Shown here one piece after another: positions 24,897-61,638 of a stretch of DNA of 64,000 nt. Both the position numbers and the translations under genes were made by a program. Positions within the stretch are counted from its first letter, which is position 1. The number at the start of each line of letters is the position of its first letter. Under the pieces are notes generated by a model that saw only the letters and a program-made list of their open reading frames with translations, was not told the DNA's origin and ran no database searches. This stretch comes from Asticcacaulis machinosus (GTDB lineage: Bacteria; Pseudomonadota; Alphaproteobacteria; Caulobacterales; Caulobacteraceae), in assembly GCF_028550435.1 (NCBI RefSeq), contig NZ_JAQQKV010000002.1, positions 992,001 through 1,056,000 of the forward strand. The letters run 5' to 3'.

Positions 24897-24989
24897 GCAA
24901 GGGTTGTCCGTGTGCGGATGGAAATGTCGTAATTCTGATATATAATGGTGCTTAGATGCCGCCACGATTGGTTTCGAGGTGGGGAATCT

Positions 24990-25655
24990 ATGAAAAAGCA
25001 TAAGGTTAAGCGCGTTATGTCCGCGAAAAGCGTTCTCGAAGATTCACCCTCCCATTTGCTGCATCGGGTTTTGCAAATCGCCCTTGATATCTATGGTTCG
25101 GAAACGGGCGGTACGGCTCTGACCCAACGTCAGTATGCGCTGCTGAAGGCGCTGGAAGGTTCGGATGGCCTGACCCAGACCGATCTGGTGCGCTCAACAG
25201 GCATTGATCGCTCGACGCTTGCCGATATGGTCGCGCGTATGACGACCAAAGGGCTTCTGGCGCGCGAGAAGTCCGCCCTTGATGCCCGTGCCAATCTGGT
25301 GCGGCTGGCTGAGGATGGGGTGGCGGCCCTTGCCGATATGACGCCCAAGGTTCTGGCGGCCGATGAGAAAATTCTGTCGCTGCTGGCCCCGCCCAAGCGC
25401 GACAGCTTTGTCAAATTGCTGCGTAAAATCACGTCTGCCCGTGAGGCGGAACTAAGTGCGCCTGCCCCCTTGAGCGATGAAGAAAAGCAGGCGCTGAAAG
25501 CCGCGAAAAAGGCCGCCAAGGCGACCAAACCTAAAAAAGATAAGAAGCCGAAAAAGGCGAAAAAGGCTGAGAAATTGCCGTTCCCGCCGCTCAGCGAAGG
25601 GGCGGATCTCAGTCAGGTCGATGCACCTGAACTGGTCAAAGAGCCCGAAGTTTAG
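24990..25655 (+). CDS. MarR-family regulator with lysine-rich tail
   Basis: 221 residues from ATG 24990, preceded by GGTGGGGA. Residues about 15-140 form a MarR winged helix (TQRQYALLKALEG, TQTDLVRSTGIDRSTLADMVARM, ALDARANLVRL). After residue about 155 comes a low-complexity tail dense in Lys and Ala (KKAAKATKPKKDKKPKKAKK), then an acidic end. The tail resembles histone H1-like C-termini and may add non-specific DNA binding. The last four bases overlap a convergent small gene. Target genes unknown. Confidence 0.8.
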   Translation: MKKHKVKRVMSAKSVLEDSPSHLLHRVLQIALDIYGSETGGTALTQRQYALLKALEGSDGLTQTDLVRSTGIDRSTLADMVARMTTKGLLAREKSALDARANLVRLAEDGVAALADMTPKVLAADEKILSLLAPPKRDSFVKLLRKITSAREAELSAPAPLSDEEKQALKAAKKAAKATKPKKDKKPKKAKKAEKLPFPPLSEGADLSQVDAPELVKEPEV

Positions 25656-25963
25656 ACGATAATATTCAATAATGAGCCGGGGCGCAGGGGCGTCAGGTTT
25701 TCCGCGCCTGTATTGCTGGCGACATCGGCGGCTTTGAAGTTGGCTGGCGTCACGGCAGGCTGCACCTGCGTGCGGGCGGGGGCTATAGTTGCAGGCGTAT
25801 TGGCCGTGGGTTGGGATGATGTATTGCCCAGAGCTTTCTGGAAAAAAGCCCGCTGAGCATCAAGGCGCGCGGTCTCTGCATTAGCAGGTGCCGCAGGCGC
25901 AGGGCCTACGTTTGGGCGGGCGCGCAGGGCATCAGCAAGGGACGGGCGAATCGGAGTGGCCAT
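25652..25963 (-). CDS. Small Ala/Pro-rich hypothetical protein
   Basis: 103 residues, rich in Ala, Pro, Thr and Asn, with no signal peptide or membrane segment, so probably mostly disordered. It begins MATPIRPSLADALRARP and ends LRPGSLLNIIV. An AT-rich stretch (25970-26020) upstream could be its promoter. It converges with the MarR gene with a 4-base overlap. No family recognised; coding status is plausible but unproven. Confidence 0.5.
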   Translation of the reverse strand: MATPIRPSLADALRARPNVGPAPAAPANAETARLDAQRAFFQKALGNTSSQPTANTPATIAPARTQVQPAVTPANFKAADVASNTGAENLTPLRPGSLLNIIV

Positions 25964-26012
25964 AACCGTAAACCTACATGAAAATCAGTGGTTATATGGT
26001 TAATATATCTTC

Positions 26013-26051: not shown

Positions 26052-26078
26052 CAGAAACTCAAAAATGTACGTGAAGGT

Positions 26079-26840
26079 CTATTGCAGGTTCACGAACAAA
26101 CCACCGTCCACCAGCAAGGACGCGCCGGTGACATAACCGGCCAGATCGGACGCGAGGAATACAGCCGGTCCCGCCATATCTTCGGGCTGACCCAAACGAC
26201 CAAGGCAGGTGCGGCTCTCCATATATTGACGCTTGGCATCGTCAGCCAGATCGTCCTTATTGATGTCGGTCAATATGGTGCCGGGCAGCAGCGCGTTGCA
26301 GCGAATGCCGTGCTTGCCCAGCGCAATGGCGGTCGATTGCATCAGCGACAGGACACCGGCCTTGGTTGGGGTGTAATGGGTCTGATATTCACCGCCGACG
26401 AGGGCCGAGATTGAAGATACGGCGATCAGGGTACCCCCATGCCCCTGTTTGACCATCTGGTTGGCGGCGGCCTGAGACATATACCAGGCGCCGTGCAGAT
26501 TGACGCGCAGGGTGCGTTCCAGCACCTCCTGCGGCATATCAAGGAAAGCGTGGAACGGGCAGATGCCCGCGTTCGACACAAAGCTGTCGATCTTGCCAAA
26601 GTGGTCTACGCCGGCCTGAATGAAGTCCTTGGCCGATTGCGGATCAGAAACATCGCCCTTAAGCGCGAAAGCTTCGCCGCCGGCAGCCTTGATTTCAGCC
26701 ACAGTGGCCGAGGCTGCAGCATCGTCACCGGCATAGTTGATGCCGATTTTGGCACCATGTTTTGCGGCACCTACGGCTATGCCGCGACCGATCCCTTTTG
26801 AAGCACCGGTGATCAGCATGACTTTGTTTTCAAGCAGCAT
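26079..26840 (-). CDS. L-rhamnose 1-dehydrogenase (SDR family)
   Basis: 253 residues. The Rossmann loop TGASKGIG is at 11-18, and the catalytic Ser near 142 goes with Y156 and K160 (YTPTK). The segments NAGICPFHAFLDMP, YTPTKAGVLSLMQS and VTGASLLVDGGLFVNLQ match, as I recall, L-rhamnose 1-dehydrogenases of Azotobacter and Sphingomonas. It oxidises L-rhamnose to L-rhamnono-lactone with NAD(P)+, the first step of the non-phosphorylating pathway. The other steps are encoded just to the right on the opposite strand. Confidence 0.85.
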   Translation of the reverse strand: MLLENKVMLITGASKGIGRGIAVGAAKHGAKIGINYAGDDAAASATVAEIKAAGGEAFALKGDVSDPQSAKDFIQAGVDHFGKIDSFVSNAGICPFHAFLDMPQEVLERTLRVNLHGAWYMSQAAANQMVKQGHGGTLIAVSSISALVGGEYQTHYTPTKAGVLSLMQSTAIALGKHGIRCNALLPGTILTDINKDDLADDAKRQYMESRTCLGRLGQPEDMAGPAVFLASDLAGYVTGASLLVDGGLFVNLQ

Positions 26841-26943: not shown

Positions 26944-27357
26944 TCAGTCATCCTGAGCCAGTCGATCGCCTATGGTCTTTGCACATAGACGCACCGCCTC
27001 ACTCAAAACCTCCATCCGTGCCGCACTGACCGGCATAGCGAACTTGCACAGTTCAAGTGTCGCCACCTGAACCCCTCCGGACATGACCGCGGCACTCAGA
27101 CCCGGCTCTAACCGTAAGGCTTGCAGGCGCGGGCCAAGGGCATAACCGCCACGTGGCACAGTCACCAGATAGTCCCGTTCCACCAGTGCCGACGCCAGCC
27201 GGTAAGTGGTTGAGCGCGTCAGTCCCAGATCATTTGACAGTGCATTCAGAGACGAGGCGCCCCGGCTCACGGCTTCGATAATGTTCAGGCCCCGGATAAG
27301 AGTCTGACTGCCCGTGATTGGTTTTGCGTCGCCCTTGTCCTCACTGCGCATTATCAT
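26944..27357 (-). CDS. Short IclR-type regulator, effector domain largely missing
   Basis: 137 residues from ATG 27357 (ATG 27351 and 27444 are alternatives; none has a good Shine-Dalgarno). The HTH domain is intact: QTLIRGLNIIEAVSRG, LNALSNDLGLTRSTTYRLASALVERDYL, GGYALGPRLQAL. Ordinary IclR proteins then have about 170 residues of effector domain. Here only about 50 follow, ending in what looks like the final helix (LSEAVRLCAKTIGDRLA). This suggests an in-frame internal deletion. It may still bind DNA as a constitutive repressor. It is divergent from rhamnonate dehydratase, a normal position for a rhamnose-pathway regulator. Confidence 0.6.
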   Translation of the reverse strand: MIMRSEDKGDAKPITGSQTLIRGLNIIEAVSRGASSLNALSNDLGLTRSTTYRLASALVERDYLVTVPRGGYALGPRLQALRLEPGLSAAVMSGGVQVATLELCKFAMPVSAARMEVLSEAVRLCAKTIGDRLAQDD

Positions 27358-27437
27358 TTTCGAGATTGACGTTTTTTGCTCTGTAATATAGTCATTCAAG
27401 TCATATATTGGAACTAAAAGATTGACAAGCGTGGAAA

Positions 27438-27453
27438 TGAGCATAATTGCTCA
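27438..27453. promoter_or_regulatory. Palindromic operator between iclR-like and rhamnonate dehydratase
   Basis: TGAGCA-TAAT-TGCTCA, 6-bp perfect arms around 4 bases, in the divergent intergenic region. A TTGACA box at 27422-27427 could be a -35 element for the rightward operon, which would place the palindrome over the -10 region. Candidate binding site for the adjacent regulator. Confidence 0.5.
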
Positions 27454-27499
27454 AATTTACGAATTTTCGATCATCCAAAGCAGGCCAAGGACTACACTC

Positions 27500-28696
27500 A
27501 TGACATTCCCGAAGATTAAGCAGGTTCGCGCCTATGTGATTAAAGGCGGCGAAGGCGGCGGGGGCGCGGATTATCACGATCAGGGCGAAGGCCACTGGAT
27601 CGACAATCACATTGCCACGTCGATGGGGCGTTATCCGGAATATCGCCAGTCACGCAAATCGTTTGGTATTAACGTGCTGGGCACTCTGGTCGTTGAGATT
27701 GAGGCCGATGACGGCACCATCGGTTTTGCCGTGACGACCGGTGGTGAGCCCGCCTGTTATATGGTCGAAAAGCACTTCGCGCGCTTCCTCGAAGGCCGCA
27801 ACCCGTTTGAGTATGAGCGCATCTGGGATCAGATGTATTTCGGCTCTCAGTACTATGGCCGTAAGGGCATTGTGGTGAACGCCATCTCCGGCGTCGATCT
27901 GGCGCTGTGGGATTTGATGGGCAAGCTGCGCGGCGAGCCGGTCTATCACATGCTGGGCGGTGCGGTGCGCGATGAGCTGCAATTCTATGCCACCGGCGCG
28001 CGTCCGGATCTGGCCAAGGAAATGGGCTTTATCGGCGGTAAGATGCCGCTGTATCATGGCCCTATCGAAGGTGATGAGGGTCTGAAGAAAAACGTCGAAC
28101 TGGTCGCGGATATGCGCTCAAAAGTCGGCGAAGATTTCTGGCTGATGTATGACTGCTGGATGGCGCTCGATGTCAACTATGCCACCCGTCTGGCCCATAA
28201 GTGTCATGAGTACGGTCTGAAGTGGATCGAAGAAGCCATCAACCCTGACGACTATTGGGGCTATGCCCAGCTCAAGAAAAACGTGCCGCAAGGTATGCTG
28301 GTCACGACCGGTGAGCACGAGTCGACCCGCTGGGGCTTCAAGATGCTGATGGACATGGGCTGCTGCGATATCATTCAGCCGGATGTGGGTTGGTGTGGCG
28401 GCGTAACCGAGCTGCTCAAGATTTCGGCTCTGGCTGACGCCAATGGCACTTTGGTCGTGCCGCATGGTTCATCCGTATACAGCTACCACTTCGTCATTAC
28501 CCGCCATAACTCACCGTTCGCTGAGTTCCTGATGATGGCCCCAAAGGCCGATCATGTAGCACCCATGTTCCACCCGCAATTGCTGGGTGAGCCGGTGCCG
28601 GAAAATGGCCGCCTGAAAGTTACGGCGCTGGATAAGCCGGGCTTTGGGGTTGAACTGAACCCCGAAGTGAAGCTTTATCGCCCTTATGAGCACTGA
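27500..28696 (+). CDS. rhmD: L-rhamnonate dehydratase
   Basis: 398 residues from ATG 27500 ([13 protein letters not shown]); the ORF extension to TTG 27422 runs through the operator. It is an enolase-superfamily protein with metal-binding acids in YDCWMALD and [12 protein letters not shown], then TTGEHEST. The segments [25 protein letters not shown] and [12 protein letters not shown] are typical of rhamnonate dehydratase. It dehydrates L-rhamnonate to 2-keto-3-deoxy-L-rhamnonate. First gene of the rightward catabolic operon. Confidence 0.9.
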
Positions 28697-28703: not shown

Positions 28704-28731
28704 ACCCCAAAATGCTTTAGCGTTTTGGGGT
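28704..28731. repeat. Strong hairpin between rhmD and the diketo-acid hydrolase
   Basis: A 12-bp stem (one wobble) ACCCCAAAATGC/GCGTTTTGGGGT with a TTTA loop, just after the rhmD stop. T-rich but interrupted sequence follows. It could stabilise the upstream message or attenuate transcription. Confidence 0.65.
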
Positions 28732-28756
28732 GGATTATTATTTTAAGGATAACTCT

Positions 28757-29629
28757 ATGAAACTCGTCCGTTTTGGCCCCAAGGGCCAGGAAAAGCCCGG
28801 TGTCGTTGATGCCGACGGAAACTTACGCGATCTGTCGTCGGTTGTGGCCGACATCACCGCCGAAGAGGTGCGCCTGTCGAAACTGGCCGGCCTGAAAGCC
28901 GCTGATGTCGCCGCCCTGCCGGTGGTTGAAGGTGATGTGCGCTACGGCGTGCCGGTCAAGAATATCGGTAAGATCATCGCCGTCGGCCTGAACTATGCTG
29001 ACCATGCCGCGGAATCCAATCTGCCGGTGCCACCGGAGCCGATCTTCTTCACCAAGGCGATCACCTCGCTGTGCGGTGCCAACGATGACGTCATGAAGCC
29101 GCGCGATGCGACCAAGATGGACTGGGAAGTCGAACTGGGCATCATCATCGGTAAGACCTGCCGCTATGTCGAAGAATCCGAAGCCCTGAATCACGTCGCC
29201 GGTTATGTGCTGGTCAACGATGTCTCCGAGCGCGCCTTCCAGAAAGAACGCGGCACCCAGTGGGTTAAAGGTAAGGGCTGTGATACGTTTTGTCCGACCG
29301 GCCCGTGGCTGGTGACCGCTGATGAAGTCGGCAACCCGCAGGAACTGGATATGTTCCTCGACGTCAACGGCGTGCGTATGCAAACCGGCAATACCCGCAC
29401 CATGATCTTCCCGGTCGCGGAAGCCATTGCCTATATCTCGCGCTTTATCACCCTGCAACCGGGCGATCTGGTCATCACCGGCACCCCTCCGGGCGTGGGC
29501 GAAGGCAAGAAGCCTGATCCGATCTACCTCAATGTCGGCGACAAGATGCACCTTGGTGTCTCAAAGCTGGGTGAGCAGCGCCAGACAGTTGTGGCGTTCA
29601 GCTTAGAAGGTCAGGAGATCATCGGTTAA
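28757..29629 (+). CDS. 2,4-diketo-3-deoxy-L-rhamnonate hydrolase (FAH family)
   Basis: 290 residues from ATG 28757 with AAGGAT upstream. Fumarylacetoacetate hydrolase fold: IIAVGLNYADHAAE, the metal acids in MDWEVELGIIIGK, YVLVNDVSERAFQ, GTPPGVGEGKKP. In the Sphingomonas rhamnose pathway the homologous enzyme cleaves 2,4-diketo-3-deoxy-L-rhamnonate to pyruvate and L-lactate. The neighbours (rhmD, SDR, lldD) support that role. FAH enzymes have varied substrates, so the assignment rests on context. Confidence 0.82.
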   Translation: MKLVRFGPKGQEKPGVVDADGNLRDLSSVVADITAEEVRLSKLAGLKAADVAALPVVEGDVRYGVPVKNIGKIIAVGLNYADHAAESNLPVPPEPIFFTKAITSLCGANDDVMKPRDATKMDWEVELGIIIGKTCRYVEESEALNHVAGYVLVNDVSERAFQKERGTQWVKGKGCDTFCPTGPWLVTADEVGNPQELDMFLDVNGVRMQTGNTRTMIFPVAEAIAYISRFITLQPGDLVITGTPPGVGEGKKPDPIYLNVGDKMHLGVSKLGEQRQTVVAFSLEGQEIIG

Positions 29630-30375
29630 TGGCATACGCTAATCGTTACGACGGCCGTTGCGCGGTTATCACCGGAGCTGCCGGTGGTCTGGGTAAGGCC
29701 GCCGCTATCCGCATCATCGCCGAAGGCGGCAAGGTCGTCCTGTGGGATCTGAACGCTGAAATGCTGGAAGCCACGGCAACTGAAATCGGCGCGGCCGGTT
29801 TTGTGGCGCTGGATGTCTCAAAGCTTGAGGAAGTCTCGGCCGCGGCGAAAAAGTCAGCGGAAATCCTGGGCAAGATCGATATCCTGATCGCGTCGGCGGG
29901 CATCACGGGTGCTACGGTGCCGGTATGGGAATTCCCGGTCGATAGCTGGCTCAAGGTCATGGATATCAACCTCAATGGCCTGTTCTACTGCAACCGTGAG
30001 ATCATCCCCTACATGCTGCAAAACGGCTATGGCCGGATCGTCAATGTGGCGTCGGTCGCGGGCAAGGAAGGCAATCCGAACGCTTCGGCCTATTCGGCTT
30101 CTAAGGCAGGCGTGATTGGCTTTACCAAGTCGTTGGGTAAGGAACTGGCGGGCAAGGGCGTGATCGTTAATGCCCTGACGCCAGCCACGTTTGAATCACC
30201 GATCCTGGCGCAATTGCCGCAGTCTCAGGTCGATTATATGCGCTCAAAGATCCCGATGGGGCGTCTGGGCATTGTCGATGAATCGGCAGCGATGGTGACG
30301 TTCATGGCGTCCGAAGAGTGCTCTTTCACCACGGCGTCGGTATTCGATACGTCGGGAGGTAGAACGACCTACTAG
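29629..30375 (+). CDS. 2-keto-3-deoxy-L-rhamnonate dehydrogenase (SDR family)
   Basis: 248 residues, starting by a one-base overlap (TAATG) with the upstream hydrolase. The Rossmann loop is TGAAGGLG (15-22), with catalytic S142, Y155 and K159 (YSASK). It is placed between the FAH hydrolase and the lactonase, so the likely reaction is NAD+-dependent oxidation of 2-keto-3-deoxy-L-rhamnonate to the 2,4-diketo acid. Family alone does not prove the substrate. Confidence 0.8.
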   Translation: MAYANRYDGRCAVITGAAGGLGKAAAIRIIAEGGKVVLWDLNAEMLEATATEIGAAGFVALDVSKLEEVSAAAKKSAEILGKIDILIASAGITGATVPVWEFPVDSWLKVMDINLNGLFYCNREIIPYMLQNGYGRIVNVASVAGKEGNPNASAYSASKAGVIGFTKSLGKELAGKGVIVNALTPATFESPILAQLPQSQVDYMRSKIPMGRLGIVDESAAMVTFMASEECSFTTASVFDTSGGRTTY

Positions 30376-30445: not shown

Positions 30446-30612
30446 TTAATCCTCCTCCCTTGCGCAAGCGGGGGAGGTGGCATCTAAAAGCCCGTTAGGG
30501 CGCATAGATGACGGAGGGGGCATTCTGGCTTCGGTTGCCCCCTCCGTCGCGGTTTTCGCCCTTGGCGAGTCCCGCGCCACCTCCCCCGTACGCTTGGCTA
30601 CAGGGGAGGAGA
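30446..30612. repeat. Mosaic of GC-rich palindromes upstream of lactonase
   Basis: Contains CCTCCTCCC...GCGGGGGAGG, then a perfect 12-bp stem ACGGAGGGGGCA/TGCCCCCTCCGT (30511-30547), then CCTCCCC...GGGGAGG (30580-30609). The last right arm doubles as the Shine-Dalgarno (GGGGAGGAG) of the lactonase gene. Similar elements occur at 24.1, 32.7, 35.7 and 63.1 kb. Confidence 0.7.
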
Positions 30613-30620
30613 TAAGAAAA

Positions 30621-31538
30621 ATGGGGACGCGCATGAAACTGCCATTCGTAGATGCTCATATCCATCTCTGGGATTTGGAAAAGCTGCGTTACGACTGGCT
30701 GTCGGCGCCGTTTGACGATACCGGCGTCAATGGCTCGACCGAAGCGATCGCCAAAACCTATCTTCCGTCTCACTACCGTGCCGATGCCACCGGTTTTGAT
30801 GTGCGAGGCACAGTTCATGTCGATGCTGGCGCGCGTGCCGATCAGGCGTTGAACGAGACCGAATGGTTGCAGGGTTTGTCTGATTCTGAGGGCCTGCCGA
30901 CCGCGCTGGTCGCGTTTGCGGGTTTGAATGACCCCAATGTTGACGCCTTGTTGGAGGCCCACGCTCAGCACAAAGCCGTGCGCGGTATCCGCCATATCCT
31001 CAACTGGCATCCGGACAGTTATTTCAGCTACACCCCCGCTAATCTGCTCGATGATCCGCAGTGGCAGGCCGGTTATGCCCAATTGGCAAAGCATGATCTG
31101 TCATTTGATCTGCAAATCTATTCCAACCAGATGGCGCAGGCCGCAGAGCTTGCGGCGAAACACCCGAATATTCCGGTCATGCTCAACCACGCCGGCATGC
31201 CGGTGAAGGATGGTGCTGACCACATGGCGCGCTGGGAAGCGGGCATGAAGGCATTGGCGGCGCAGCCCCACGTCTGGGCCAAGATTTCCGGCATGGGCTT
31301 TGTCGAGCGTAACTGGACGACGGCGTCCATTCGCCCGCTGGTGCTTAAAGCCATTGAGATATTCGGCACGGATCGCGTCATGTTCGCCTCCGATGTGCCG
31401 ACCGATAAACTGTTTTCTGACTACGCCACGATCATCAATGCCTTTGATGAGATTACCAAAGAATTTTCCGACGATGAGCGCCGCGACATGTTTGGCCGTA
31501 ACGCCAATCGCGCTTACCGTCTGAATCTGGATATTTAA
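30621..31538 (+). CDS. L-rhamnono-lactonase candidate (amidohydrolase, COG3618)
   Basis: 305 residues from ATG 30621, nine bases after GGGGAGGAG; the longer ORF reads back through the repeat. TIM-barrel amidohydrolase: DAHIHLWDL (H13, H15), a conserved barrel His in MLNHAGMP, and a C-terminal metal Asp in MFASDVPTDKLF. COG3618 includes fucono- and rhamnono-lactonases. In this operon it should open L-rhamnono-lactone to L-rhamnonate, closing the only gap between dehydrogenase and dehydratase. Confidence 0.82.
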   Translation: MGTRMKLPFVDAHIHLWDLEKLRYDWLSAPFDDTGVNGSTEAIAKTYLPSHYRADATGFDVRGTVHVDAGARADQALNETEWLQGLSDSEGLPTALVAFAGLNDPNVDALLEAHAQHKAVRGIRHILNWHPDSYFSYTPANLLDDPQWQAGYAQLAKHDLSFDLQIYSNQMAQAAELAAKHPNIPVMLNHAGMPVKDGADHMARWEAGMKALAAQPHVWAKISGMGFVERNWTTASIRPLVLKAIEIFGTDRVMFASDVPTDKLFSDYATIINAFDEITKEFSDDERRDMFGRNANRAYRLNLDI

Positions 31539-32765: not shown

Positions 32766-32809
32766 GCGCATCTTTTCCCAAAAACCGCTTCACACTTTTT
32801 GGGATGCGC
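32766..32809. repeat. 44-bp palindromic repeat, copy A
   Basis: Imperfect inverted repeat with arms GCGCATC/GATGCGC and inner CCCAAAAA/TTTTTGGG. It resembles a palindrome family common between alphaproteobacterial genes. A second copy, same length with a few substitutions, lies inside the GH43-like/GH35 gene at 37428-37471. Confidence 0.8.
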
Positions 32810-32831
32810 TCTGCCTGTTTGGAATAGATCT

Positions 32832-36996: not shown

Positions 36997-37018
36997 GGGA
37001 GACACTTTACGGGGAGGG

Positions 37019-42489: not shown

Positions 42490-42807
42490 ATGACCCAAAT
42501 TCATGGCTTTAAAATGCAGCTTAAACCCGGCTTTGAGGCCGAGTACCAAAAGCGCCACGACGAAATCTGGCCGGAACTGTCGGAACTGCTGCATGAAGCG
42601 GGGGTATCGGACTATTCGATCTTTCTCGACCCTGAGACCCTGACCCTGTTCGGGGTTTTAAAGCGCACCGATGACCATAAAATGGATGATCTGCCCAGCC
42701 TGCCGATCATGAAAAAATGGTGGGCCTATATGGCCGATATTATGGACAGCAATCCGGATAATTCGCCGGTGGCCAAGGATTTGAAGCACGTCTTCCACAT
42801 GGCATAG
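42490..42807 (+). CDS. rhaM: L-rhamnose mutarotase
   Basis: 105 residues, the standard size. [26 protein letters not shown] contains the catalytic His, and [12 protein letters not shown] is the conserved tryptophan segment. It interconverts alpha and beta L-rhamnose so that isomerase or dehydrogenase is fully supplied. Cytosolic. Followed by a bidirectional terminator. Confidence 0.95.
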
Positions 42808-42842: not shown

Positions 42843-42843
42843 C

Positions 42844-43665: not shown

Positions 43666-43823
43666 GTACGGTCCGTCCCCTTGGTTTTTATTGTCCCGAA
43701 CGGCGACGCAAAGCCTGTGTGTCCAAACGCGGACGGGAATCATGATTAAAGATGATTGAATATATTAAACAGGTTTTTCGCGCTTGTCGAATTTATGTTC
43801 ACAATATGAAACTAAAGACTGTT

Positions 43824-47572: not shown

Positions 47573-47654
47573 CGTGCGCAAATTTGCGTGATTATGATTG
47601 ATTGCTGCCGATTTCGCGCTACTGTCCCAACAAAATTGTTTACAGGGATATATC

Positions 47655-53128: not shown

Positions 53129-53129
53129 A
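53010..53129 (+). other. Possible upstream ORF coupled to the receptor start
   Basis: 39 codons from ATG 53010 ending in TGA that overlaps the receptor ATG (TGATG). No good ribosome site precedes it and the product (rich in R, G, S, P) matches nothing I know. It may be a leader whose translation opens the receptor start, or chance. Confidence 0.25.
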
Positions 53130-56100
53130 TGTTTACTAACCGTAACCGGTCATTCGCCAAGGCCTTGCAGCAAGGCACGGCCATGACCCTTGTTTCCATG
53201 ATGGCGCTGTCGGGCGTGGCTGTGGCTCAGGACGCGATTGTATCGTCCAGCCAGGCTGGCGCTCCGGTCGCCGCCGCCGCCGAAGAAGACGTCCAGGAAG
53301 TGGTCGTCGTCGGTACCCGCGCTGCTCAGCAATCGGCGATCGACCGAAAGAAGCGTGCAAGGACGGCTACAGATTCGATCGTAGCCGATGATGTTGGCTC
53401 GTTCCCGGATCGCAATCTTAACGAAGCTATTTCACGCGTTGCTGGTATGGGCATTACACGCGGCGAAACGGGTGAAGGTGAAGGGCTTACCTTGCGGGGT
53501 AACGGGGCCGATCTTACACGGGTCGAAATGGACGGCATGTCCGTGGCGTCGTCAGGCTTTGACCTTGCGGTCGGTGGAACATCAGGACGGGCGTCCGATC
53601 TGCGCGAACTGCCTGCCGATTTGATCAAAAGCGTCGATGTGGTCAAAGGTAATACTGCGGACATGACAGAAGGCGGGCTTGGCGGTTCGGTTCAGATCAA
53701 AACGCGGTCAGGCCTTGACTTTAAGAAGCCTTATTTCTTAATGCGTGTTGCTGCTGACCGTAACTCGCTCAGCGAGCGTTGGTCGCCTGACATCAATATT
53801 CTGGCTTCACGCAAGTTCTTAGATAATCGACTGGGTGTTATATTCAATATGACATCTACGCGCCGTCTGAATGACAGCCATCAATTGAATGCGGCGGGCG
53901 CTAATAATGCGGCCGGTTATAACCGTTTCTTTGATTTCGATAATTCTGCTGAAAAGACGTTTGAGTTCAATCCGTCTTTAGTCACGGGTGTTGGGGCTAA
54001 CGATCCGGCGGCAACATGGGCGCTGGCTTCAGGTTCCGGCACATTTAATGCTCTGACTCCGGTCGAAATCGTTACGCGCTCGGCCAATGCCAACTCCAAG
54101 GCAGATTGTATGGCTGCGTTTCCGCTCTATACAACTGCGGAACTAAATACTATTACTCCGGGCTCAAACAATGCCAACCGTGCCGCTGCGCAAGCGCAAC
54201 GTGTTAGTGAGCAAGTCACCTGCTTAAACCAGTGGAACGATTATTCGCCGAGTCTTGTTCGTGACACTAACCTTACCCAATACGAAGACCGTATGGCCTG
54301 GGATGTTCGTTTCGACTATAAGGTTACCGATAATCTTTCTGTTTACTTAAAGTACGCAGTTGCAGACCGCACCCAGGAAGATATTCGCCGCAACCGCACG
54401 CGCGGGGAAATTGGCCGAACGACAACAGATACTCGCTTCGTAACGCCTTCTCTGGTAACGAATACAAATATCCCATATGGCAGCGTTAATACTATTTCTG
54501 CCGTCCCCAACAGTGGTTATTATATATATAATGCCGGCTCGCCAACGGGTTCAATTACGCTGGACAGTACTCTGGGTGGCTCTAATGTTGGCCATGCTTT
54601 CCAGAACTATGGTATCGGTGTAAACGTTGTGCCGGGTAGTGTTGTGGTTGATGAAAATCACTACCTGACAGAGTTTGATATTACGAATGCTTCGGTGAAC
54701 TACGATAATATCCGGAATGACCAGATCTGGGATAATGATTATCTGCTCGTCGGTGGTGAGTATCGCAAGAATAACCTGTACGTCGAATTTCAGGCCAGCC
54801 GCAGTGAATCCAGCTACACGCGATATGATAAGCGTTTTCGTCGAAGTGCTGCCTATGGCACGGGAACTATGAAAGTCCTGCCGAGCGGGTTATGGACGTT
54901 TGAGTTCCCCGACGGCTTCAATCCCGACAATATGGTCAATTCTGTCGTTCTGAACGCGCCTGTAGGCACCACGCAGGCTGCCCGCGATGCGGCTGCCCGT
55001 TATACGAATACGGTTGGTTTCGATTATTCACCACGACTGGTCGAAAGCTCCGAAGATGCGGCTAAGTTTGATGTAACCTATCGCATGCCGGATTTCCCAG
55101 TACTCAAGCGCTTTAAGGCGGGGGGCAGTTATCGCAAAATCCTTAACGATTCCTGGGGTGGGGGCGGTTTCTCGCCATCAGCGGGCGTGTTTGTGCCGAC
55201 CAATAACCTTCGTGGTGTCTTAAGGGCTTGTGAAAATCAGGCAACGACCACAGCGGCGAATGCGTGCGTGTACGGATACGTACCTAATGTAACCACGGGC
55301 ACCACTTTCCGTCATGGGACGCAAACCATGACCGTGGCCCAAATGGTCGCAATGTATGAGAACAGCATTGAATACAATGACGGTGCGTTCATGCCTGATT
55401 ATGAAGGCGTTAGCGGTCTTAACCTCTGGAATACAATTGATGTTGATAAGGCATTCGAACAAATAGCGGGTACTGTTAACTATAACTTTGACTGCCTGAA
55501 AGTTTGCACGGGTAGCGACGGAAAAGAGTATGCTCAACCGGTCGGTATTTCCAACGAAGAGATCACCGCCGCTTATTACATGTTCGATTTCGAGCAAGAA
55601 TTACCTTTTGATATGCTGTTCGATGGTAATTTCGGTGTGCGTATGGTGCAGTCGAAAGTGGCGGCTTCTGGCTCGGTGGTACTTGCCTCAACTCGTAAGA
55701 ATTTTACGGATGACAACAACCCGGCAAATGACTGGAATCTGACGGACGGCTTTAGCCGCGTTACGACCACCAATATAAATAAACCTGTTGCTATTGAGCG
55801 TGAGTACACGGATTGGTTGCCAAGCTATAATGCCAATCTATGGCTTGTTCCCGATAGGGTTGTGATGCGCTATGCGTGGTCTAAAACTGTTGCGCGTCCG
55901 CCGATTGCGCGCCTATTTCCAGGTGGCACCTGTACTGTTGATGAACGTATCGAAGATCTCATTGATGCCGGAGATCCTGATCTTGACATGAACTGCACAA
56001 CTTTTGGCAATCCAGACCTGAAGCCTTACACGGCAACTAAAAACAATACCTCTCTGGAGTGGTATGTTAACAGAGATACCTTCCTCGGCCTGTCTTATTA

Positions 56101-56809
56101 CCGCCAAAAAGTAAAGATTGGCGGGCCGATTCTTCTCAGAGTTACCGATCAGCCCGTGTTTTCCGGGACTGATGAAGTTGACCCTGTGACCGGGCGTCCG
56201 TTATCGGACTTCCTGTTTACTTATAACACCTACATCAACGGCCCTGGATATACTCAGTCAGGTTGGGAGTTCACCTCCAAAACGGCTCTGACGTTCTTGC
56301 CTTGGAAACTTCGCCATACGGGTGTTGATTTCAACATTTCCACCAATAAGTCTGCAGGAGCCGCGGGCTACATCGATCCAATTACGGGAGAAAACGTAGG
56401 TATTCCGGGCCGTCCTGATTACTTTGCAAACCTGGTTGTATGGTATGATGATGGCAAGACAAATGCCCGCATCGCCTATCAGGCACGGTCGCAAGTACTA
56501 AGCTGCGTCTCGGCTTGTGGTAATAATGCTGACAATGCTTATGCCTTCCCTAACCAGAACCCGCTGAACTTTGTCCGTCTGCCCTATAACCCCGGAGAGC
56601 CTTACTATACTCGGGAATACGGTTATCTCGACGCCAAGGTCACGCATAAGCTTCGTCCAAACATTGAGCTTTACTGGGAAGGCCGTAACCTTCTTCGTGA
56701 GGCCAGTGTAAGCGAAGGGTCTCGCGGTTTTGCAAACTCTGAATACGCCTGGTCTACTACATATGGCGGTCGCCGCTTTATGGTCGGTCTGACGTACAGA
56801 ATGGAATAG
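53129..56809 (+). CDS. TonB-dependent receptor, Xanthomonas/Caulobacter type
   Basis: 1226 residues from ATG 53129, with AGGAGGA eight bases upstream; the ORF extension to 52961 is leader. Signal peptide to about VAVAQ (34). A TonB box-like segment EEDVQEVVVVGTR is near 52-64. The plug covers about 70-190 (DSIVADDVGSFPDRNLNEAISRVAGM, LTLRGNGADLTRVEMDGM, KGNTADMTEGGLGG). The barrel follows with long extracellular loops and several Cys pairs. It should take RG-derived oligosaccharides across the outer membrane with energy from TonB/ExbBD. AT content appears higher than in neighbouring genes. A strong terminator follows. Confidence 0.93.
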   Translation: MFTNRNRSFAKALQQGTAMTLVSMMALSGVAVAQDAIVSSSQAGAPVAAAAEEDVQEVVVVGTRAAQQSAIDRKKRARTATDSIVADDVGSFPDRNLNEAISRVAGMGITRGETGEGEGLTLRGNGADLTRVEMDGMSVASSGFDLAVGGTSGRASDLRELPADLIKSVDVVKGNTADMTEGGLGGSVQIKTRSGLDFKKPYFLMRVAADRNSLSERWSPDINILASRKFLDNRLGVIFNMTSTRRLNDSHQLNAAGANNAAGYNRFFDFDNSAEKTFEFNPSLVTGVGANDPAATWALASGSGTFNALTPVEIVTRSANANSKADCMAAFPLYTTAELNTITPGSNNANRAAAQAQRVSEQVTCLNQWNDYSPSLVRDTNLTQYEDRMAWDVRFDYKVTDNLSVYLKYAVADRTQEDIRRNRTRGEIGRTTTDTRFVTPSLVTNTNIPYGSVNTISAVPNSGYYIYNAGSPTGSITLDSTLGGSNVGHAFQNYGIGVNVVPGSVVVDENHYLTEFDITNASVNYDNIRNDQIWDNDYLLVGGEYRKNNLYVEFQASRSESSYTRYDKRFRRSAAYGTGTMKVLPSGLWTFEFPDGFNPDNMVNSVVLNAPVGTTQAARDAAARYTNTVGFDYSPRLVESSEDAAKFDVTYRMPDFPVLKRFKAGGSYRKILNDSWGGGGFSPSAGVFVPTNNLRGVLRACENQATTTAANACVYGYVPNVTTGTTFRHGTQTMTVAQMVAMYENSIEYNDGAFMPDYEGVSGLNLWNTIDVDKAFEQIAGTVNYNFDCLKVCTGSDGKEYAQPVGISNEEITAAYYMFDFEQELPFDMLFDGNFGVRMVQSKVAASGSVVLASTRKNFTDDNNPANDWNLTDGFSRVTTTNINKPVAIEREYTDWLPSYNANLWLVPDRVVMRYAWSKTVARPPIARLFPGGTCTVDERIEDLIDAGDPDLDMNCTTFGNPDLKPYTATKNNTSLEWYVNRDTFLGLSYYRQKVKIGGPILLRVTDQPVFSGTDEVDPVTGRPLSDFLFTYNTYINGPGYTQSGWEFTSKTALTFLPWKLRHTGVDFNISTNKSAGAAGYIDPITGENVGIPGRPDYFANLVVWYDDGKTNARIAYQARSQVLSCVSACGNNADNAYAFPNQNPLNFVRLPYNPGEPYYTREYGYLDAKVTHKLRPNIELYWEGRNLLREASVSEGSRGFANSEYAWSTTYGGRRFMVGLTYRME

Positions 56810-57013: not shown

Positions 57014-59770
57014 ATGTTGTCTCATATAATCTCACGTCGCCACATGTTGCAGTCGGCGGCCGCCTTGGGTGCTGTAGCGTTTGCGGCCGGTAGTGGCGTT
57101 GCGCAGGCCGCCACGGGGCAGGTGGCTGGCAAAGGCAAGCCGGTGTCTGCCACGCAACTGTCATGGCTGGATAAGGTTACGCCGTTGCAGTTTGACGGTG
57201 CGACCCTTGGGGTGCCGTGGCCGCGTGGTACGGTCAAGGCCACTCAGGCGCTGAAACTTACCGGAGTTGATGGGCGCGAAGTGGCGTCGCAGTCATGGCC
57301 GCTGGCCTACTGGCCGGATGGATCGCTGAAATGGTCGGCCCATGCGGTCGCAGGTGCTGAGGGCCTGACGGGGGCCTCTGTCGTTATGGGCAAGCCCGCC
57401 GTGCCGGCCAATGCCGTGCGGGTGACCCAGGCCGCAGCCATGATCACGGTCAAATCCGGCGACTTAAGCTGGCAGGTGCCGACATCGGGTGAGGCCCTGA
57501 TTGCCTCGGCCACCAAGGGCGGGCGCACGACCCTGCGTGACCTGAAACTGGTGGCGCGTTCGCAGGATCAGGCTGATCTGGAGGTCACCGGCAGCGTCAC
57601 CCAATCTCAGTTCACCTCAAAAGTCACCAAGGTCACGGTTGAACAGACCGGGCCGGTGCGGGCGGTGCTTAAGGTTGAGGGGACGCATTCGGGTAATGGC
57701 CGCGACTGGCTGCCGTTCTCCGTGCGCCTCTATTTCTATGCGGGTACGGAAAGTGTGCGTATCGTCCATAGCTTCATCTTTGACGGCGACCCGTTCAAGG
57801 ACTTTATCCGCGGGCTGGGGGTGACGGCCAAGGTTGCTATGTCCGATGAGACCTATAACCGACACATCCGCCTGTCGGGCGAAGGTGTCGGTGTATGGGG
57901 CGAAGCCGTGAAGCCGCTGACCGGCCTGCGCCGTGATCCGGGTAAGGCATTCCGTGATGCGCAGGTGGCCGGTAAGGCGATCCCACCGATCGCGGGTATG
58001 GCTAAGGCCGTTCAGGACGGCTTGAAATGGATACCGGAATGGGGTGATTTTTCGCTGTCGCAACTGACGCCCGATGGCTTTACGGTGAAAAAACGCACCG
58101 AAAAAGGTCACGCCTGGATCGATTCCAACGCCGGGACGCGCACCAAGGGGCTGGGTTATGTCGGTGGGGCTGCGGGCGGCGTGGCGCTGGGCTTCAAGGA
58201 TTTCTGGCAAAGATCACCGACCGCCATCGATATCCGCAACGCGCACACCGATCTGGCGGACATTACGGCCTGGCTGTGGTCGCCGGACGCCCCGGCCATG
58301 GACGTGCGCCCCTATCGCTCGGCCGGTGAGATGGATACCCACCCGGAAGAGATCGAAGGGCTGAACATCACCTATGAGGATTACGAAAAAGGCTGGGATA
58401 CGGCCACGGGTGTGGCGCGTACCTCTGAGCTTAATCTGTGGGTGCTGAACACCACACCCAGCCACGAAGTCTTTTCCGGCATGGCCGAACGTGTCGCCAA
58501 TCCGCCGCGCCTGATGGCGTCGCCGGAGCGCATTCATGCCGCCGGGGTGTTTGGTGACTGGGATGTGGTCAACGCCACGACGCCGGCCCGCAAAATCCTC
58601 GAAGACCGTCTGACCTATCAGATCGAGTATTATATGCAGCAGGTCGAAGCCCACCGCTGGTACGGGTTCTGGACTTACGGCGATGTCATGCACACCTATG
58701 ATGCCGACCGGCACATGTGGCGTTATGATATCGGCGGCTATGCGTGGGACAACTCGGAACTCTCGACCGATCTGTGGATCTGGTACACGTATCTAAGAAC
58801 CGGTCGGGCTGATGTGTTCAAGTTCGGTGAGGCCATGACGCGCCAGACCGGCGAGGTCGATGTCTATCATCTGGGGCGCTTCAAGGGCTTTGGCACCCGT
58901 CATGGTGTGCAGCCGTGGTCGGATTCGTCCAAGCAGCCGCGCGTCTCCAATGCCGCCTACCGCCGCATCTATTATTACCTGACCGCCGATGAGCGGGTCG
59001 GTGATCTGATGCGCGACCTCAACGAGTCTGATTTCTCGCTCAAGAATGTCGATATTTCGCGTAAACTACCGCCGTCGCCGGAGCGTGAAACCCCCGATGG
59101 CATCGTCAATTCGTCGTTCGGCACGTCTTGGGGATCGTTCATTTCGGCTTGGCTGACCGAGTGGGAGCGTACGGGTGATACCAAATGGCGTGACCGGATC
59201 ATCAACGGCATGGTCACGATTGGCGGCCTCAAGCGCCGCTGGTTTGCCTCGTCGGCGCCCTATGATCTCAAGACCGGTAAATTCCTGGGCGAAGGTGACT
59301 ATATCGCCATTTCGCACCTCAACGGTGTATTCGGGGTGGTTGAGATGAGTTCCGAACTGCTGTCGCTGATCGATGAGCCACTGTACCGTAAGGCCTGGCT
59401 GGAATATTGCCGCTATTATAATGCGCCGAATAATGAGCTTCAGGCCTTGCTCGGTACTGTGCCGCGCGGGCGTAACCTGCGCGATTCCCATTCGCGCCTG
59501 ACGGCCTATGCGGCCTTCCATGAAAAGGATCGGGCCTTGGGTCTGCGGGCGTGGAGCGAGTTCTTTGGCAATGAGGGGCGGGAATCCGATGGCGGCTTAG
59601 GCCGCCGCACCACCCGCATCGACGGGGTAAAAACCCTGCGGCCACTGGATGAGGATAACAGCCTGTCGACCAATGGCACCGCGCAGTGGGGACTGGCCGC
59701 GATCCAGAACATGGCTCTGATCGGCGACAGCCTTGATGAAGCCGCCAAGATCGCCGGTGTTGTGCAATGA
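57014..59770 (+). CDS. Exo-rhamnogalacturonan lyase family protein (PL26, YetA-like)
   Basis: 918 residues. A Tat leader (SRRHMLQSAAALGAVAFAAG) with Arg7-Arg8. N-terminal beta-sandwich regions (to about 330) precede an (alpha/alpha)6 domain: EAHRWYGFWTYGDVMHTYD, WRYDIGGYAWDNSELSTDLWIW, HLGRFKGFGTRHGVQPWSDSSKQPR, EGDYIAISHLNGVFG. These match the PcRGLX/YetA family, founded on a Penicillium RG exolyase. It should release unsaturated galacturonyl-rhamnose from RG-I ends in the periplasm. Its stop overlaps the GH2 start by four bases (ATGA). Confidence 0.85.
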   Translation: MLSHIISRRHMLQSAAALGAVAFAAGSGVAQAATGQVAGKGKPVSATQLSWLDKVTPLQFDGATLGVPWPRGTVKATQALKLTGVDGREVASQSWPLAYWPDGSLKWSAHAVAGAEGLTGASVVMGKPAVPANAVRVTQAAAMITVKSGDLSWQVPTSGEALIASATKGGRTTLRDLKLVARSQDQADLEVTGSVTQSQFTSKVTKVTVEQTGPVRAVLKVEGTHSGNGRDWLPFSVRLYFYAGTESVRIVHSFIFDGDPFKDFIRGLGVTAKVAMSDETYNRHIRLSGEGVGVWGEAVKPLTGLRRDPGKAFRDAQVAGKAIPPIAGMAKAVQDGLKWIPEWGDFSLSQLTPDGFTVKKRTEKGHAWIDSNAGTRTKGLGYVGGAAGGVALGFKDFWQRSPTAIDIRNAHTDLADITAWLWSPDAPAMDVRPYRSAGEMDTHPEEIEGLNITYEDYEKGWDTATGVARTSELNLWVLNTTPSHEVFSGMAERVANPPRLMASPERIHAAGVFGDWDVVNATTPARKILEDRLTYQIEYYMQQVEAHRWYGFWTYGDVMHTYDADRHMWRYDIGGYAWDNSELSTDLWIWYTYLRTGRADVFKFGEAMTRQTGEVDVYHLGRFKGFGTRHGVQPWSDSSKQPRVSNAAYRRIYYYLTADERVGDLMRDLNESDFSLKNVDISRKLPPSPERETPDGIVNSSFGTSWGSFISAWLTEWERTGDTKWRDRIINGMVTIGGLKRRWFASSAPYDLKTGKFLGEGDYIAISHLNGVFGVVEMSSELLSLIDEPLYRKAWLEYCRYYNAPNNELQALLGTVPRGRNLRDSHSRLTAYAAFHEKDRALGLRAWSEFFGNEGRESDGGLGRRTTRIDGVKTLRPLDEDNSLSTNGTAQWGLAAIQNMALIGDSLDEAAKIAGVVQ

Positions 59771-61638
59771 ACCGGCGTGATCTGATGAAGGGCGTGGCTA
59801 CGAGTGTGGCTGCTGCGGCGTTTCTGCCGGCGGTTGCGGCGCGCGCTCAAACCATAGCTAAACCCGCTATCGTGATGGCCAATGCCTCGGCGCGCACAAA
59901 AATCGATCTGTCCGGTGAATGGCATGTGTCGATTGATCCGTACCGAGCAGGCCTTGTCGATGCGGTTGGTGATCCGTCAAAGCCGCGGCACTGGCGCTAT
60001 GCCGATGTCAATGTGCAGGAGGCCGAGGTCAAAAACCCCGGCACCTTCTTTGAGCAGGATATGCGCCGCTCAGGCACGGTGACCCTGCCGGGTTCGTGGA
60101 ACGCGCAAAAGCCGGAGTGGCGTTATTATGACGGGCTGATGTGGTATCAGCGCGTTCTGGAGGCCAAACCCGAAGCGGGTCGGCGGGCGTTTCTTTATTT
60201 CGAGGCATCCAACTACACCACCCATGTTTATCTGAATGGTAAGAAACTGGGCGTCCATGTCGGCGGGTTTACCCCGTTTGCCTTTGAGGTCACGGATGTA
60301 CTGCGCGATGGCGAAAACCGGGTGACCCTGGGCGTTGATTCTGAGCATGACGCCAATGCCGTGCCGCCGGTGATTACCGACTGGGATATATACGGTGGCG
60401 TGACCCGCCCGATCCGCTTTCTTACCACGCCTCTGACCTATATTGATGACGCCTTTGTGCGGTTGGGGCGGGACGGGATTATCCGCGCGTCGGTAGCGCT
60501 TAACGGGGCCTCGGCGGCGGGGCAGAAGGTGGTGCTGACCATTAAGGGCCAAAAGGCGCTTGCGGCCACAACGGATGCCAATGGCAAGGCTGAACTCAGC
60601 GTCAAGGCGCCGAAATCGCTTAAGCTGTGGACGCCGGAAACCCCCACCCTGCATGAGGTGCGGATTGAGGCCGCCGGTGATGTGTTCACCGACCGGATCG
60701 GTTTCAGGACGGTCGAAGTCAAGGGCGAGGATATTCTTCTCAATGGTAAGCCGATCTTCCTGCGCGGGATTTCGCACCATGAGGAAGAGATCGGCACCAA
60801 CCCTGCGCGTGTGATTACCGAAGACGCCGCCCGTAAGCTTCTGACCGAGATCAAGACGGGACTGAACGGCAACTATGTCCGTCTGTCGCACTATCCGCAC
60901 TCGGAAGTGACTGTGCGCTTGTGCGATGAGATGGGCCTTCTGGTGTGGAGCGAAATTCCGGTCTATTGGGCGGTCAATTTCGGCAATCCCGATACGCTGA
61001 AAATCGCGCAAACCATGCTGACCGAAAACATCCTGCGCGACCGTAACCGCGCGTCGGTTATCATCTGGTCGATCGCCAATGAGACGCCGCAGACCGAGGT
61101 GCGCAATCAGTTTTTGCGCACACTGGCGCAAACGGCACGCGATCTGGATGAAACCCGTCTGGTCAGTGCGGCCCTGCTGGTTGAGCGCAAAATCGTCGAT
61201 GGCCATATCGATATGCACATCGATGATCCGTTGATACCTGCACTCGATATCATGTCGGTCAATACCTATAATGGCTGGTACGGCGATGATAAGCTGGAAG
61301 CCCTGCCGGCGACGGTATGGCGTGCCGATGTCAAAAGACCGCTCATCCTGTCCGAGTTCGGGGCCGATTCCAAAGCCGGTTTCCACGATCCGCAGCTAAA
61401 GCGCAAATATTCGGAAGAGTATCAGGCCGATTATTATCGCAACACGCTGGCGATGGCCGATAAGATTCCGTATCTGCGCGGCTTATCGCCGTGGATTTTG
61501 AAGGACTTTCAGGCTCCGCGCCGTCAGCACCCGATCTATCAGCAGGGCTGGAACCGCAAGGGTGTGATTTCGGAAACCGGTGAGCGCAAGCTGGCGTTCA
61601 ATGTCCTGTCCGATTTCTATAAGTCTAAAATGAATTAA
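59767..61638 (+). CDS. GH2 glycoside hydrolase, beta-glucuronidase-like, exported
   Basis: 623 residues. A Tat leader (NRRDLMKGVATSVAAAAFLPAVAARAQ). Sandwich, Ig-like and TIM-barrel domains of GH2. Acid/base E439 (WSIANETPQ) and nucleophile E530 (LILSEFGAD). N596 and K598 in GWNRKG form the NxK motif that separates beta-glucuronidases from beta-galactosidases. The likely substrate is glucuronic acid on RG-I or arabinogalactan side chains. Translationally coupled to PL26. Its 3' end overlaps convergent ccmG by 14 bases. Confidence 0.87.
   Translation: MNRRDLMKGVATSVAAAAFLPAVAARAQTIAKPAIVMANASARTKIDLSGEWHVSIDPYRAGLVDAVGDPSKPRHWRYADVNVQEAEVKNPGTFFEQDMRRSGTVTLPGSWNAQKPEWRYYDGLMWYQRVLEAKPEAGRRAFLYFEASNYTTHVYLNGKKLGVHVGGFTPFAFEVTDVLRDGENRVTLGVDSEHDANAVPPVITDWDIYGGVTRPIRFLTTPLTYIDDAFVRLGRDGIIRASVALNGASAAGQKVVLTIKGQKALAATTDANGKAELSVKAPKSLKLWTPETPTLHEVRIEAAGDVFTDRIGFRTVEVKGEDILLNGKPIFLRGISHHEEEIGTNPARVITEDAARKLLTEIKTGLNGNYVRLSHYPHSEVTVRLCDEMGLLVWSEIPVYWAVNFGNPDTLKIAQTMLTENILRDRNRASVIIWSIANETPQTEVRNQFLRTLAQTARDLDETRLVSAALLVERKIVDGHIDMHIDDPLIPALDIMSVNTYNGWYGDDKLEALPATVWRADVKRPLILSEFGADSKAGFHDPQLKRKYSEEYQADYYRNTLAMADKIPYLRGLSPWILKDFQAPRRQHPIYQQGWNRKGVISETGERKLAFNVLSDFYKSKMN

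What the first reader, a model, noticed from the sequence alone, without database searches (positions are those of the whole stretch)
24897..61624. A 37-kb pectin/rhamnose island splits a conserved housekeeping neighbourhood
The left flank is dapF-mtaB-ftsY-yciB reading right. The right flank is ccmA-B-C-D-G reading left. In other alphaproteobacteria (I recall Sinorhizobium meliloti, acnA-ccmABCD-cycY next to ispZ-ftsY-mtaB-dapF) these two convergent blocks are adjacent. Here everything between yciB and ccmG is carbohydrate use plus a MarR gene and a small ORF. The GH2 gene abuts and overlaps the 3' end of ccmG by 14 bases. This suggests insertion of a whole utilisation locus at one site, with no integrase visible.
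Basis: partly seen in the sequence, partly recalled or inferred. Interest (0 to 1): 0.75.

Follow-up and report, generated by a model that had tools for sequence, protein, structure and literature searches.

The report
Old pectin locus, swapped receptor gene
The 36-kb stretch is an old, inherited set of pectin and rhamnose digestion genes in an Asticcacaulis bacterium rather than a recent foreign insert, and its surprising feature is that the gene for its outer-membrane gate has been exchanged between species while the neighbouring genes stayed put.

Summary
Sugar-use genes lie between yciB and ccmG, and GH2 overlaps ccmG by 14 bases. The old convergent neighbourhood is real: ftsY and ccmC lie 1.6-3.3 kb apart in 45 of 79 countable non-genus family genomes. 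The left edge is wrong: marR follows yciB in 24 of 24 genus relatives and in 10 of 10 outgroup loci fetched.

The reading as one inserted locus is only partly supported. All 4 sister species carry the locus, about as diverged at 4-fold sites as the flanks (receptor left out). Its rhamnogalacturonan core lies between yciB and the ccm genes, in the same order, in four more species; its rhamnose module lies elsewhere in those four. No integrase, tRNA or junction repeat was found.

The unexpected result is the TonB-dependent receptor. Among three sisters the flanking DNA and the receptor's N-terminus are 93-100% identical, then the body falls to about 57-74%, silent sites included, and its tree contradicts its neighbours'. 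In one species pair 5 of 20 other syntenic receptor genes show the same jump at silent sites.

The parts
24321..24896 (+). yciB/ispZ (left flank; the TTG ORF starts further upstream)
   Evidence: Pfam IspA
24945..25655 (+). marR regulator: part of the ancestral flank, not of the island
   Evidence: after yciB in 24/24 genus relatives and 10/10 outgroup loci fetched
25652..25963 (-). small ORF (103 aa), genus-level flank gene
   Evidence: no Pfam hit, no NCBIfam hit; after marR in 4/4 sisters and 10/20 other genus loci
26079..26840 (-). L-rhamnose 1-dehydrogenase (Lra1)
   Evidence: NCBIfam NF053807 444.7 bits, cut-off 400
26944..27444 (-). IclR-type helix-turn-helix regulator
27422..28696 (+). 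L-rhamnonate dehydratase
   Evidence: NF011968 758 bits, cut-off 393
28730..29629 (+). 2,4-didehydro-3-deoxy-L-rhamnonate hydrolase
   Evidence: NF053535 538 bits, cut-off 500
29629..30375 (+). SDR, probable 2-keto-3-deoxy-L-rhamnonate 4-dehydrogenase
   Evidence: Pfam adh_short; role inferred from position
30477..31538 (+). amidohydrolase, probable L-rhamnonolactonase
   Evidence: Pfam Amidohydro_2; below the L-fuconolactonase cut-off; role inferred
31607..32683 (+). RhaT L-rhamnose:H+ symporter
   Evidence: Pfam RhaT
32799..33968 (+). L-lactate dehydrogenase LldD
   Evidence: NF033901 789 bits, cut-off 550
34044..35666 (-). GPH-type sugar:cation symporter (MFS_2)
   Evidence: below the TIGR00792 cut-off; three diverged versions among the five species
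35821..37113 (-). GH88/GH105-type unsaturated glycuronyl hydrolase
   Evidence: Pfam Glyco_hydro_88; GH105 assignment inferred
37019..40969 (-). GH43-GH35 fusion, beta-galactosidase type
41161..42486 (+). GDSL esterase, possibly a rhamnogalacturonan acetylesterase
   Evidence: role inferred
42490..42807 (+). RhaM L-rhamnose mutarotase
42844..43743 (-). DeoR-type regulator
43824..45242 (-). FGGY sugar kinase (RhaB-like by position)
45500..46807 (+). L-rhamnose isomerase RhaI
   Evidence: TIGR02629 699.9 bits, cut-off 646.75
46817..47572 (+). DUF1961 protein
47598..48980 (+). PL22-like lyase
   Evidence: same place in the core of G004, G006, G007, G015
48997..50064 (+). unknown 355-aa protein, found only in window and G020 among the five
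   Evidence: no Pfam/NCBIfam hit
50166..52133 (-). PL11 rhamnogalacturonan lyase
   Evidence: 19/25 genus genomes, own included
52961..56809 (+). TonB-dependent receptor (probable start 53129, inferred from the alignment); constant N-terminus and exchanged body from about the plug domain on
   Evidence: TIGR01782 398 bits, cut-off 310, Pfam Plug
57014..59770 (+). PcRGLX-like exo-rhamnogalacturonan lyase
59767..61638 (+). GH2 glycosidase (beta-glucuronidase/galactosidase type), not found in G017
61625..62152 (-). ccmG/dsbE (right flank)

Best explanation
This is a vertically inherited rhamnogalacturonan-I/rhamnose utilisation locus of Asticcacaulis. It lies in the gap between yciB-marR-orf103 and the ccm genes, a gap that is closed in about half of the countable family genomes outside the genus and open in the genus. 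The rhamnogalacturonan core (PL22-like, PL11, receptor, PcRGLX) was probably already in this gap in the common ancestor of the window's 5-species clade and an 8-species clade. The rhamnose module is native to the genus and is joined to the core at this site only in the window's clade; the other lineages either scattered it or never had it here. Function, by family inference: the receptor imports oligomers, lyases and glycosidases trim them, RhaT and MFS_2 carry products into the cytoplasm, and the non-phosphorylated rhamnose route ends in pyruvate plus L-lactate, which LldD oxidises. On this stable frame the receptor gene is repeatedly replaced in place by homologous recombination: the N-terminus stays and the plug-and-barrel body is exchanged with other Asticcacaulis lineages, up to near the stop codon. 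Shown: synteny, divergence, breakpoints, silent-site jump, discordant trees. Inferred: enzyme roles, recombination as the route, direction of transfer, selective cause.
For: Synteny in 4/4 sisters. Island divergence similar to flank divergence. Core in the same order and orientation relative to yciB in G004, G006, G007 and G015. rhamD in 23/25 genus genomes, own included; module order kept elsewhere in six genomes. Ancestral closed site in outgroups. Receptor among G005, G013 and G020: 4-fold divergence N-terminus 0.00-0.02, body 0.65-0.66, neighbours PL11 0.12-0.16 and PcRGLX 0.21-0.23; G005-G017 body 0.18 although PL11 is 0.44 and PcRGLX 0.27. AU test rejects the five receptors as one clade, p 2e-47, and rejects G005+G013+G020, p 1e-54; the neighbours' tree rejects window+G007, p 4e-60, and G005+G017, p 0.004. 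Control slots fall in two groups at silent sites: 15 of 20 bodies 0.00-0.33, 5 of 20 bodies 0.53-0.55.
Against: The placing of the opening of the gap rests on a quick tree of seven flank proteins in which the order of G024, the 5-species and the 8-species clade is not resolved. Only 4 of the 8 could be read from yciB to ccm; in G001 and G012 the two lie on different contigs and G014 and G018 are fragmented. No genome seen has the core alone, tight between marR and ccmG. PL11, DUF1961 and MFS_2 diverge more than the median and the hydrolase (fahA) less, so the island is not uniform. The 3' return to high identity is clear at the island slot and at two of the five exchanged control slots (94-96%), weaker at three (64, 77, 87%). 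Some unexchanged control slots have poor flanks too (slot 8 upstream 43%, slot 20 downstream 47%). Enzyme roles are profile-based only.
Confidence: 0.82

Rival explanations
1. One horizontal insertion of the finished 36-kb locus into the marR-ccmG gap in the ancestor of the five-species clade.
For: Tight ancestral neighbourhood in outgroups; only this clade was seen to have the complete block there.
Against: The core is syntenic at the same site in four species outside the clade; the rhamnose module is genus-native with a similar internal order; no integrase among the annotated genes, no tRNA, no shared 11-mer at the junctions, only one shared 10-mer; GC like the flanks apart from the receptor.
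Confidence: 0.08
2. Ancestral full locus (a stronger form of the best explanation): the whole order yciB, module, core, ccmG existed in the common ancestor of the 5- and 8-species clades and was broken up by rearrangement in the other lineages.
For: Other lineages keep different subsets of the window's linkages: core between yciB and ccm in G004, G006, G007, G015; module about 4 kb from ccm in G012 and about 17 kb in G001, with the core about 20 kb beyond the module in G012.
Against: In G003, G008, G016 and G024 the rhamnonate dehydratase is on another contig than ftsY and ccmC; direction of change cannot be read from the tree; G012 and G001 place the module on opposite sides of ccm.
Confidence: 0.4
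3. The receptor is not exchanged but simply evolves very fast under diversifying selection.
For: Surface receptors often show fast loops (general knowledge).
Against: Silent 4-fold sites jump as well, 0.65 against 0.12-0.23 in the neighbours; G005 and G017 receptors are 97% identical although their PL11 is 87%; two separate groups of control slots at silent sites.
Confidence: 0.03
4. Receptor differences are assembly or binning artefacts.
Against: G020 and G017 are single-contig genomes; the same pattern appears between G005 and G020 at the island slot and at other slots.
Confidence: 0.03

Closest known systems
Polysaccharide utilisation loci of Gram-negative bacteria (TonB-dependent receptor type; recalled)
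   Same: One receptor of the TonB-Xanth-Caul family with lyases, glycosidases, esterase, transporters and regulators that fit one polymer.
   Different: No SusD-like partner among the annotated genes; receptor body exchanged between species.
Non-phosphorylated L-rhamnose pathway, diketo-hydrolase branch (recalled from Sphingomonas; the aldolase branch is described in passages of PMC3870299)
   Same: Rhamnose dehydrogenase, rhamnonate dehydratase and diketo-hydrolase above curated cut-offs.
   Different: An L-lactate dehydrogenase, an L-rhamnose isomerase and an FGGY kinase are in the same locus; the fused RhaD profile TIGR02632 is not above cut-off in this genome (8 of 25 genus genomes have it); unfused aldolases were not searched.
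In-place allelic exchange of surface proteins (for example pyoverdine receptor loci; recalled)
   Same: Diverged alleles in one fixed slot between conserved flanks.
   Different: Here a receptor of a carbohydrate locus in Asticcacaulis, with a constant N-terminus and an edge near the plug domain, in several slots of one genome pair.
Integrative genomic islands
   Same: Extra block inside an ancestral housekeeping neighbourhood.
   Different: No integrase, tRNA or junction repeat found; shared by all 4 sisters; divergence similar to the flanks.

Membership tests
Integrative genomic island | Integrase or transposase within or at the edge | tested here: not met
   None among the Pfam hits of the ORFs scanned; small ORFs in gaps were not scanned
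Integrative genomic island | tRNA or direct repeats at the junctions | tested here: not met
   No tRNA in the window; no shared word of 11 or more bases between 25401-26200 and 61401-62300, one direct 10-mer
Integrative genomic island | Patchy presence among close relatives or divergence unlike the flanks | tested here: not met
   4/4 sisters carry it, medians similar to the flanks, receptor left out
Integrative genomic island | Empty site in relatives | tested here: inconclusive
   Tight site in 45/79 countable family genomes and 11/51 class genomes within 10 kb, but seen in none of the 25 genus genomes (G021 limited by contig ends)
TonB-dependent polysaccharide utilisation locus for rhamnogalacturonan I | Receptor plus polymer-specific lyases and glycosidases in one conserved cluster | tested here: met
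   TIGR01782, PL11, PcRGLX, GH88, GH35/43, GH2; order conserved in sisters
TonB-dependent polysaccharide utilisation locus for rhamnogalacturonan I | Growth on or induction by the polymer | not testable with these tools
   Needs culture
Non-phosphorylated L-rhamnose pathway (diketo-hydrolase branch) | Dehydrogenase, dehydratase and diketo-hydrolase above curated cut-offs | tested here: met
   NF053807, NF011968 and NF053535
Non-phosphorylated L-rhamnose pathway (diketo-hydrolase branch) | Lactonase and 4-dehydrogenase identity | tested here: inconclusive
   Right superfamilies only
Allelic exchange of a surface receptor | Sharp identity break inside conserved flanks, silent sites included | tested here: met
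   for the island slot; for silent sites at 5 of 20 control slots, where the 3' edge is clear in 2 of 5
Allelic exchange of a surface receptor | Gene tree contradicts neighbours' tree | tested here: met
   AU tests (island slot only)

The most novel reading that the evidence does not exclude
Asticcacaulis carries a set of receptor slots in which the address end of the TonB-dependent receptor gene (upstream region and N-terminus) is fixed with its locus, while the plug-and-barrel body is a cassette traded between species, so that catabolic loci are vertical and their outer-membrane gates are a shared gene pool, perhaps kept diverse by phages or by variable pectin side chains. In one species pair 6 of 21 syntenic slots show the silent-site jump (5 of 20 controls, plus the island slot).
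Probability: 0.5. Interest if true: 0.7.

Novelty: new variant of a known kind. Interest (0 to 1): 0.5.

Why it matters
The locus itself is an ordinary inherited pectin-use cluster, which corrects a reading as a mobile island. The receptor result matters because it separates two evolutionary modes inside one locus: stable catabolism and exchanged gates. If general, it would explain why receptor specificity is poorly predicted from orthology, and it makes the question of what selects for receptor diversity (phage, substrate or bacteriocin) directly testable in a bacterium not known to me as a pathogen.

Tried and rejected
Considered and rejected: mobile island (no integrase, tRNA or junction repeat); recent foreign origin from composition (only the receptor is low in GC, 0.51, and the receptors in the same slot of the other genomes compared are lower than PcRGLX too, 0.51-0.60 against 0.60-0.65); fast evolution of the receptor (silent sites). 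Tried without much gain: the genome-contig scan with the receptor returned 21 loci, all Asticcacaulis, so no donor outside the genus was seen; Rfam found nothing; the left-flank stretches of the four sisters were fetched to serve as receptor controls but not used, because no TonB-dependent receptor turned up among the eight window ORFs scanned. Paper searches (open-licence PubMed Central only) listed no title or abstract start that reports this locus or receptor-body exchange in Caulobacteraceae; two searches listed 12 of 16 and 10 of 21 papers. I read only passages of PMC11732741, PMC3870299 and PMC3782348; the other papers I saw as listings.

Limits of counts: the family tables were cut, so 79 non-genus genomes with both genes listed were counted of 224 searched. 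The class count uses 51 genomes with both genes of 75 searched beside the own one. The control slots were chosen by position and strand from the table, on one contig of G005; 20 were used, three further pairs that I had recognised were dropped for the fetch limit, and three of the twenty (those of L170/L179, L178/L181, L174/L173) had been compared before. In one search at most 26 candidates per genome were scored (of up to 112), so paralogue counts are lower bounds.
Full report
What is there. The window most likely belongs to an Asticcacaulis genome: all 21 loci of the receptor scan carry that name. Equal contig lengths suggest names for some genus handles (G005 = A. endophyticus KCTC 32296, G004 = A. 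currens, G001 = A. aquaticus, G012 = strain YBE204, G013 = metagenome assembly UBA2476, less surely G014 = W46); this is my inference. Left flank dapF-mtaB-ftsY-yciB and right flank ccmG-ccmC-ccmB are confirmed. Between them lie marR, a 103-aa ORF and 23 genes that fit use of rhamnogalacturonan I and rhamnose.

The neighbourhood. In the family outside the genus, ftsY and ccmC converge with 1.6-3.3 kb between them in 45 of 79 genomes with both genes listed; in 16 they share a contig but are not such neighbours, and in 18 they are on different contigs. In the class, 11 of 51 genomes have the two convergent within 10 kb. In all 10 adjacent outgroup loci fetched the order is ftsY-yciB-marR facing ccmG, and marR follows yciB in 24 of 24 genus relatives. 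MarR, and within the genus the small ORF (4 of 4 sisters, 10 of 20 others), are flank. The added block starts near 25964-26079.

Not a recent insertion. Four sister species (ftsY 98-99% identical; tree) carry the block in the same order between the same flanks. In G017 no GH2 was found, only G020 shares the unknown 355-aa gene, and G005, G013 and G020 have an extra gene between receptor and PcRGLX, identified in G005 as GH95. At 4-fold sites the block is about as diverged as the flanks (medians 0.31-0.36 against 0.33-0.39, receptor left out). In the 20 other genus genomes yciB-marR and ccmG were not seen as neighbours (contig ends limit G021; G024 has ccm on the dapF side).

In G004, G006, G007 and G015, the four genomes of the 8-species clade in which ftsY and ccm share a contig, ftsY and ccmC are 77-160 kb apart. 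The interval contains the core PL22-PL11-receptor-PcRGLX in the window's order and orientation relative to yciB; the ccm block itself is turned round in G004 and G015. In G007 the nine interval ORFs scanned include ordinary chromosomal genes (a pilus-type secretin, ribonucleotide reductase, AMP nucleosidase). In G022 the interval read has no core, and that genome has no PL11 match. In G010 ccm lies on the dapF side, so the stretch read there says nothing about the yciB side.

The rhamnose module is genus-wide: rhamnonate dehydratase in 23 of 25 genomes, own included (relatives 88-98%, split in two frames in G017). Its internal order is kept in the six genomes G001, G004, G006, G007, G012 and G015; in G003, G008, G016 and G024 a shorter set around the dehydratase was seen, in G008 with other neighbours. 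It is far from yciB and ccm in G004, G006, G007 and G015, about 17 kb from ccmG in G001 and about 4 kb from ccmB in G012. The block is thus made of old genus parts; whether the window's clade joined them or the others broke them apart is open.

Mechanism of the locus (inferred from families). The receptor and the lyases PL11 and PcRGLX take in and open the polymer; GH88/105, GH35/43, GH2 and the esterase trim it; RhaT and the GPH symporter import products. Rhamnose goes through dehydrogenase, lactonase, dehydratase, 4-dehydrogenase and hydrolase to pyruvate and L-lactate, which LldD oxidises. An isomerase and a kinase of the phosphorylated route are also there, without a fused RhaD above cut-off in this genome (unfused aldolases not searched).

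The receptor. Between window and sisters the receptor is 48-52% identical while PL11 and PcRGLX are 84-93%. G005, G013 and G020 have PL11 97-98% identical but receptors 66-68%; G005 and G017 have receptors 97% identical but PL11 87%. Among G005, G013 and G020, DNA identity is 93-100% through PL11, the intergenic region and the first part of the receptor, falls near the plug start to about 57-74%, and returns to 95-100% downstream; for G005/G013 the return begins within about 60 bases before the stop. At 4-fold sites the N-terminus differs by 0.00-0.02, the body by 0.65-0.66, PL11 by 0.12-0.16 and PcRGLX by 0.21-0.23. The receptor tree joins window with G007 and rejects the five-species clade; the neighbours' tree rejects window+G007. 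This is exchange, not drift.

Is it only this gene? In G020 against G005, 20 other receptor slots matched by position and strand were compared. Fifteen have bodies 92-100% identical; five have 50, 59, 61, 73 and 78% under upstream DNA 94-97% identical and N-termini 84-97% identical. At silent sites the two groups separate cleanly: bodies 0.00-0.33 in the fifteen, 0.53-0.55 in the five, whose N-termini are at 0.05-0.27. Against a perfect cassette picture, downstream DNA is 94-96% identical in only two of the five and 64, 77 and 87% in the others, two of the five fall off gradually along the protein (slots 1 and 10), and a few unexchanged slots also have poor flanks or N-termini (slots 8, 9, 20). 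With the island slot, 6 of 21 slots in this pair show the jump.

Verdict. The given finding is an ordinary inherited locus with a mis-set left edge; the exchanged receptor body is the part worth following.

Noticed in passing
24201-24244: A 44-base stretch upstream of yciB with an inverted repeat has 27 further full or partial matches across the genome and none elsewhere in the window.
   Followed up: partly
L017:9267-9926 (G005 yciB): yciB of G005 is 55-57% identical to its sisters' yciB (97-98% among themselves) and 77% to that of G024: a second single-gene replacement, in a core gene.
   Followed up: partly
L018:8699-9947 (G017): The rhamnonate dehydratase of G017 is split over two frames.
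   Followed up: no
L012-L013 (G020 receptor): The G020 receptor ORF ends about 60 residues before its relatives' C-terminus.
   Followed up: no
43824-46807: An isomerase and an FGGY kinase of the phosphorylated rhamnose route sit in the locus although the fused RhaD profile is above cut-off in only 8 of 25 genus genomes, not in this one.
   Followed up: partly
G001 and G012 genomes: Relatives of the window's receptor are multiplied there (14 and 10 matches, pieces included, at E below 1e-100, against one in the window's genome, not all candidates scored).
   Followed up: no
L024:5183-12164 (G024): In G024 the ccm genes lie directly upstream of dapF on the same strand, a different arrangement of the same two blocks.
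   Followed up: no
34044-35666: The GPH symporter also exists in three diverged versions (76-81%) among the five species, against 99% within G005/G013/G020.
   Followed up: no
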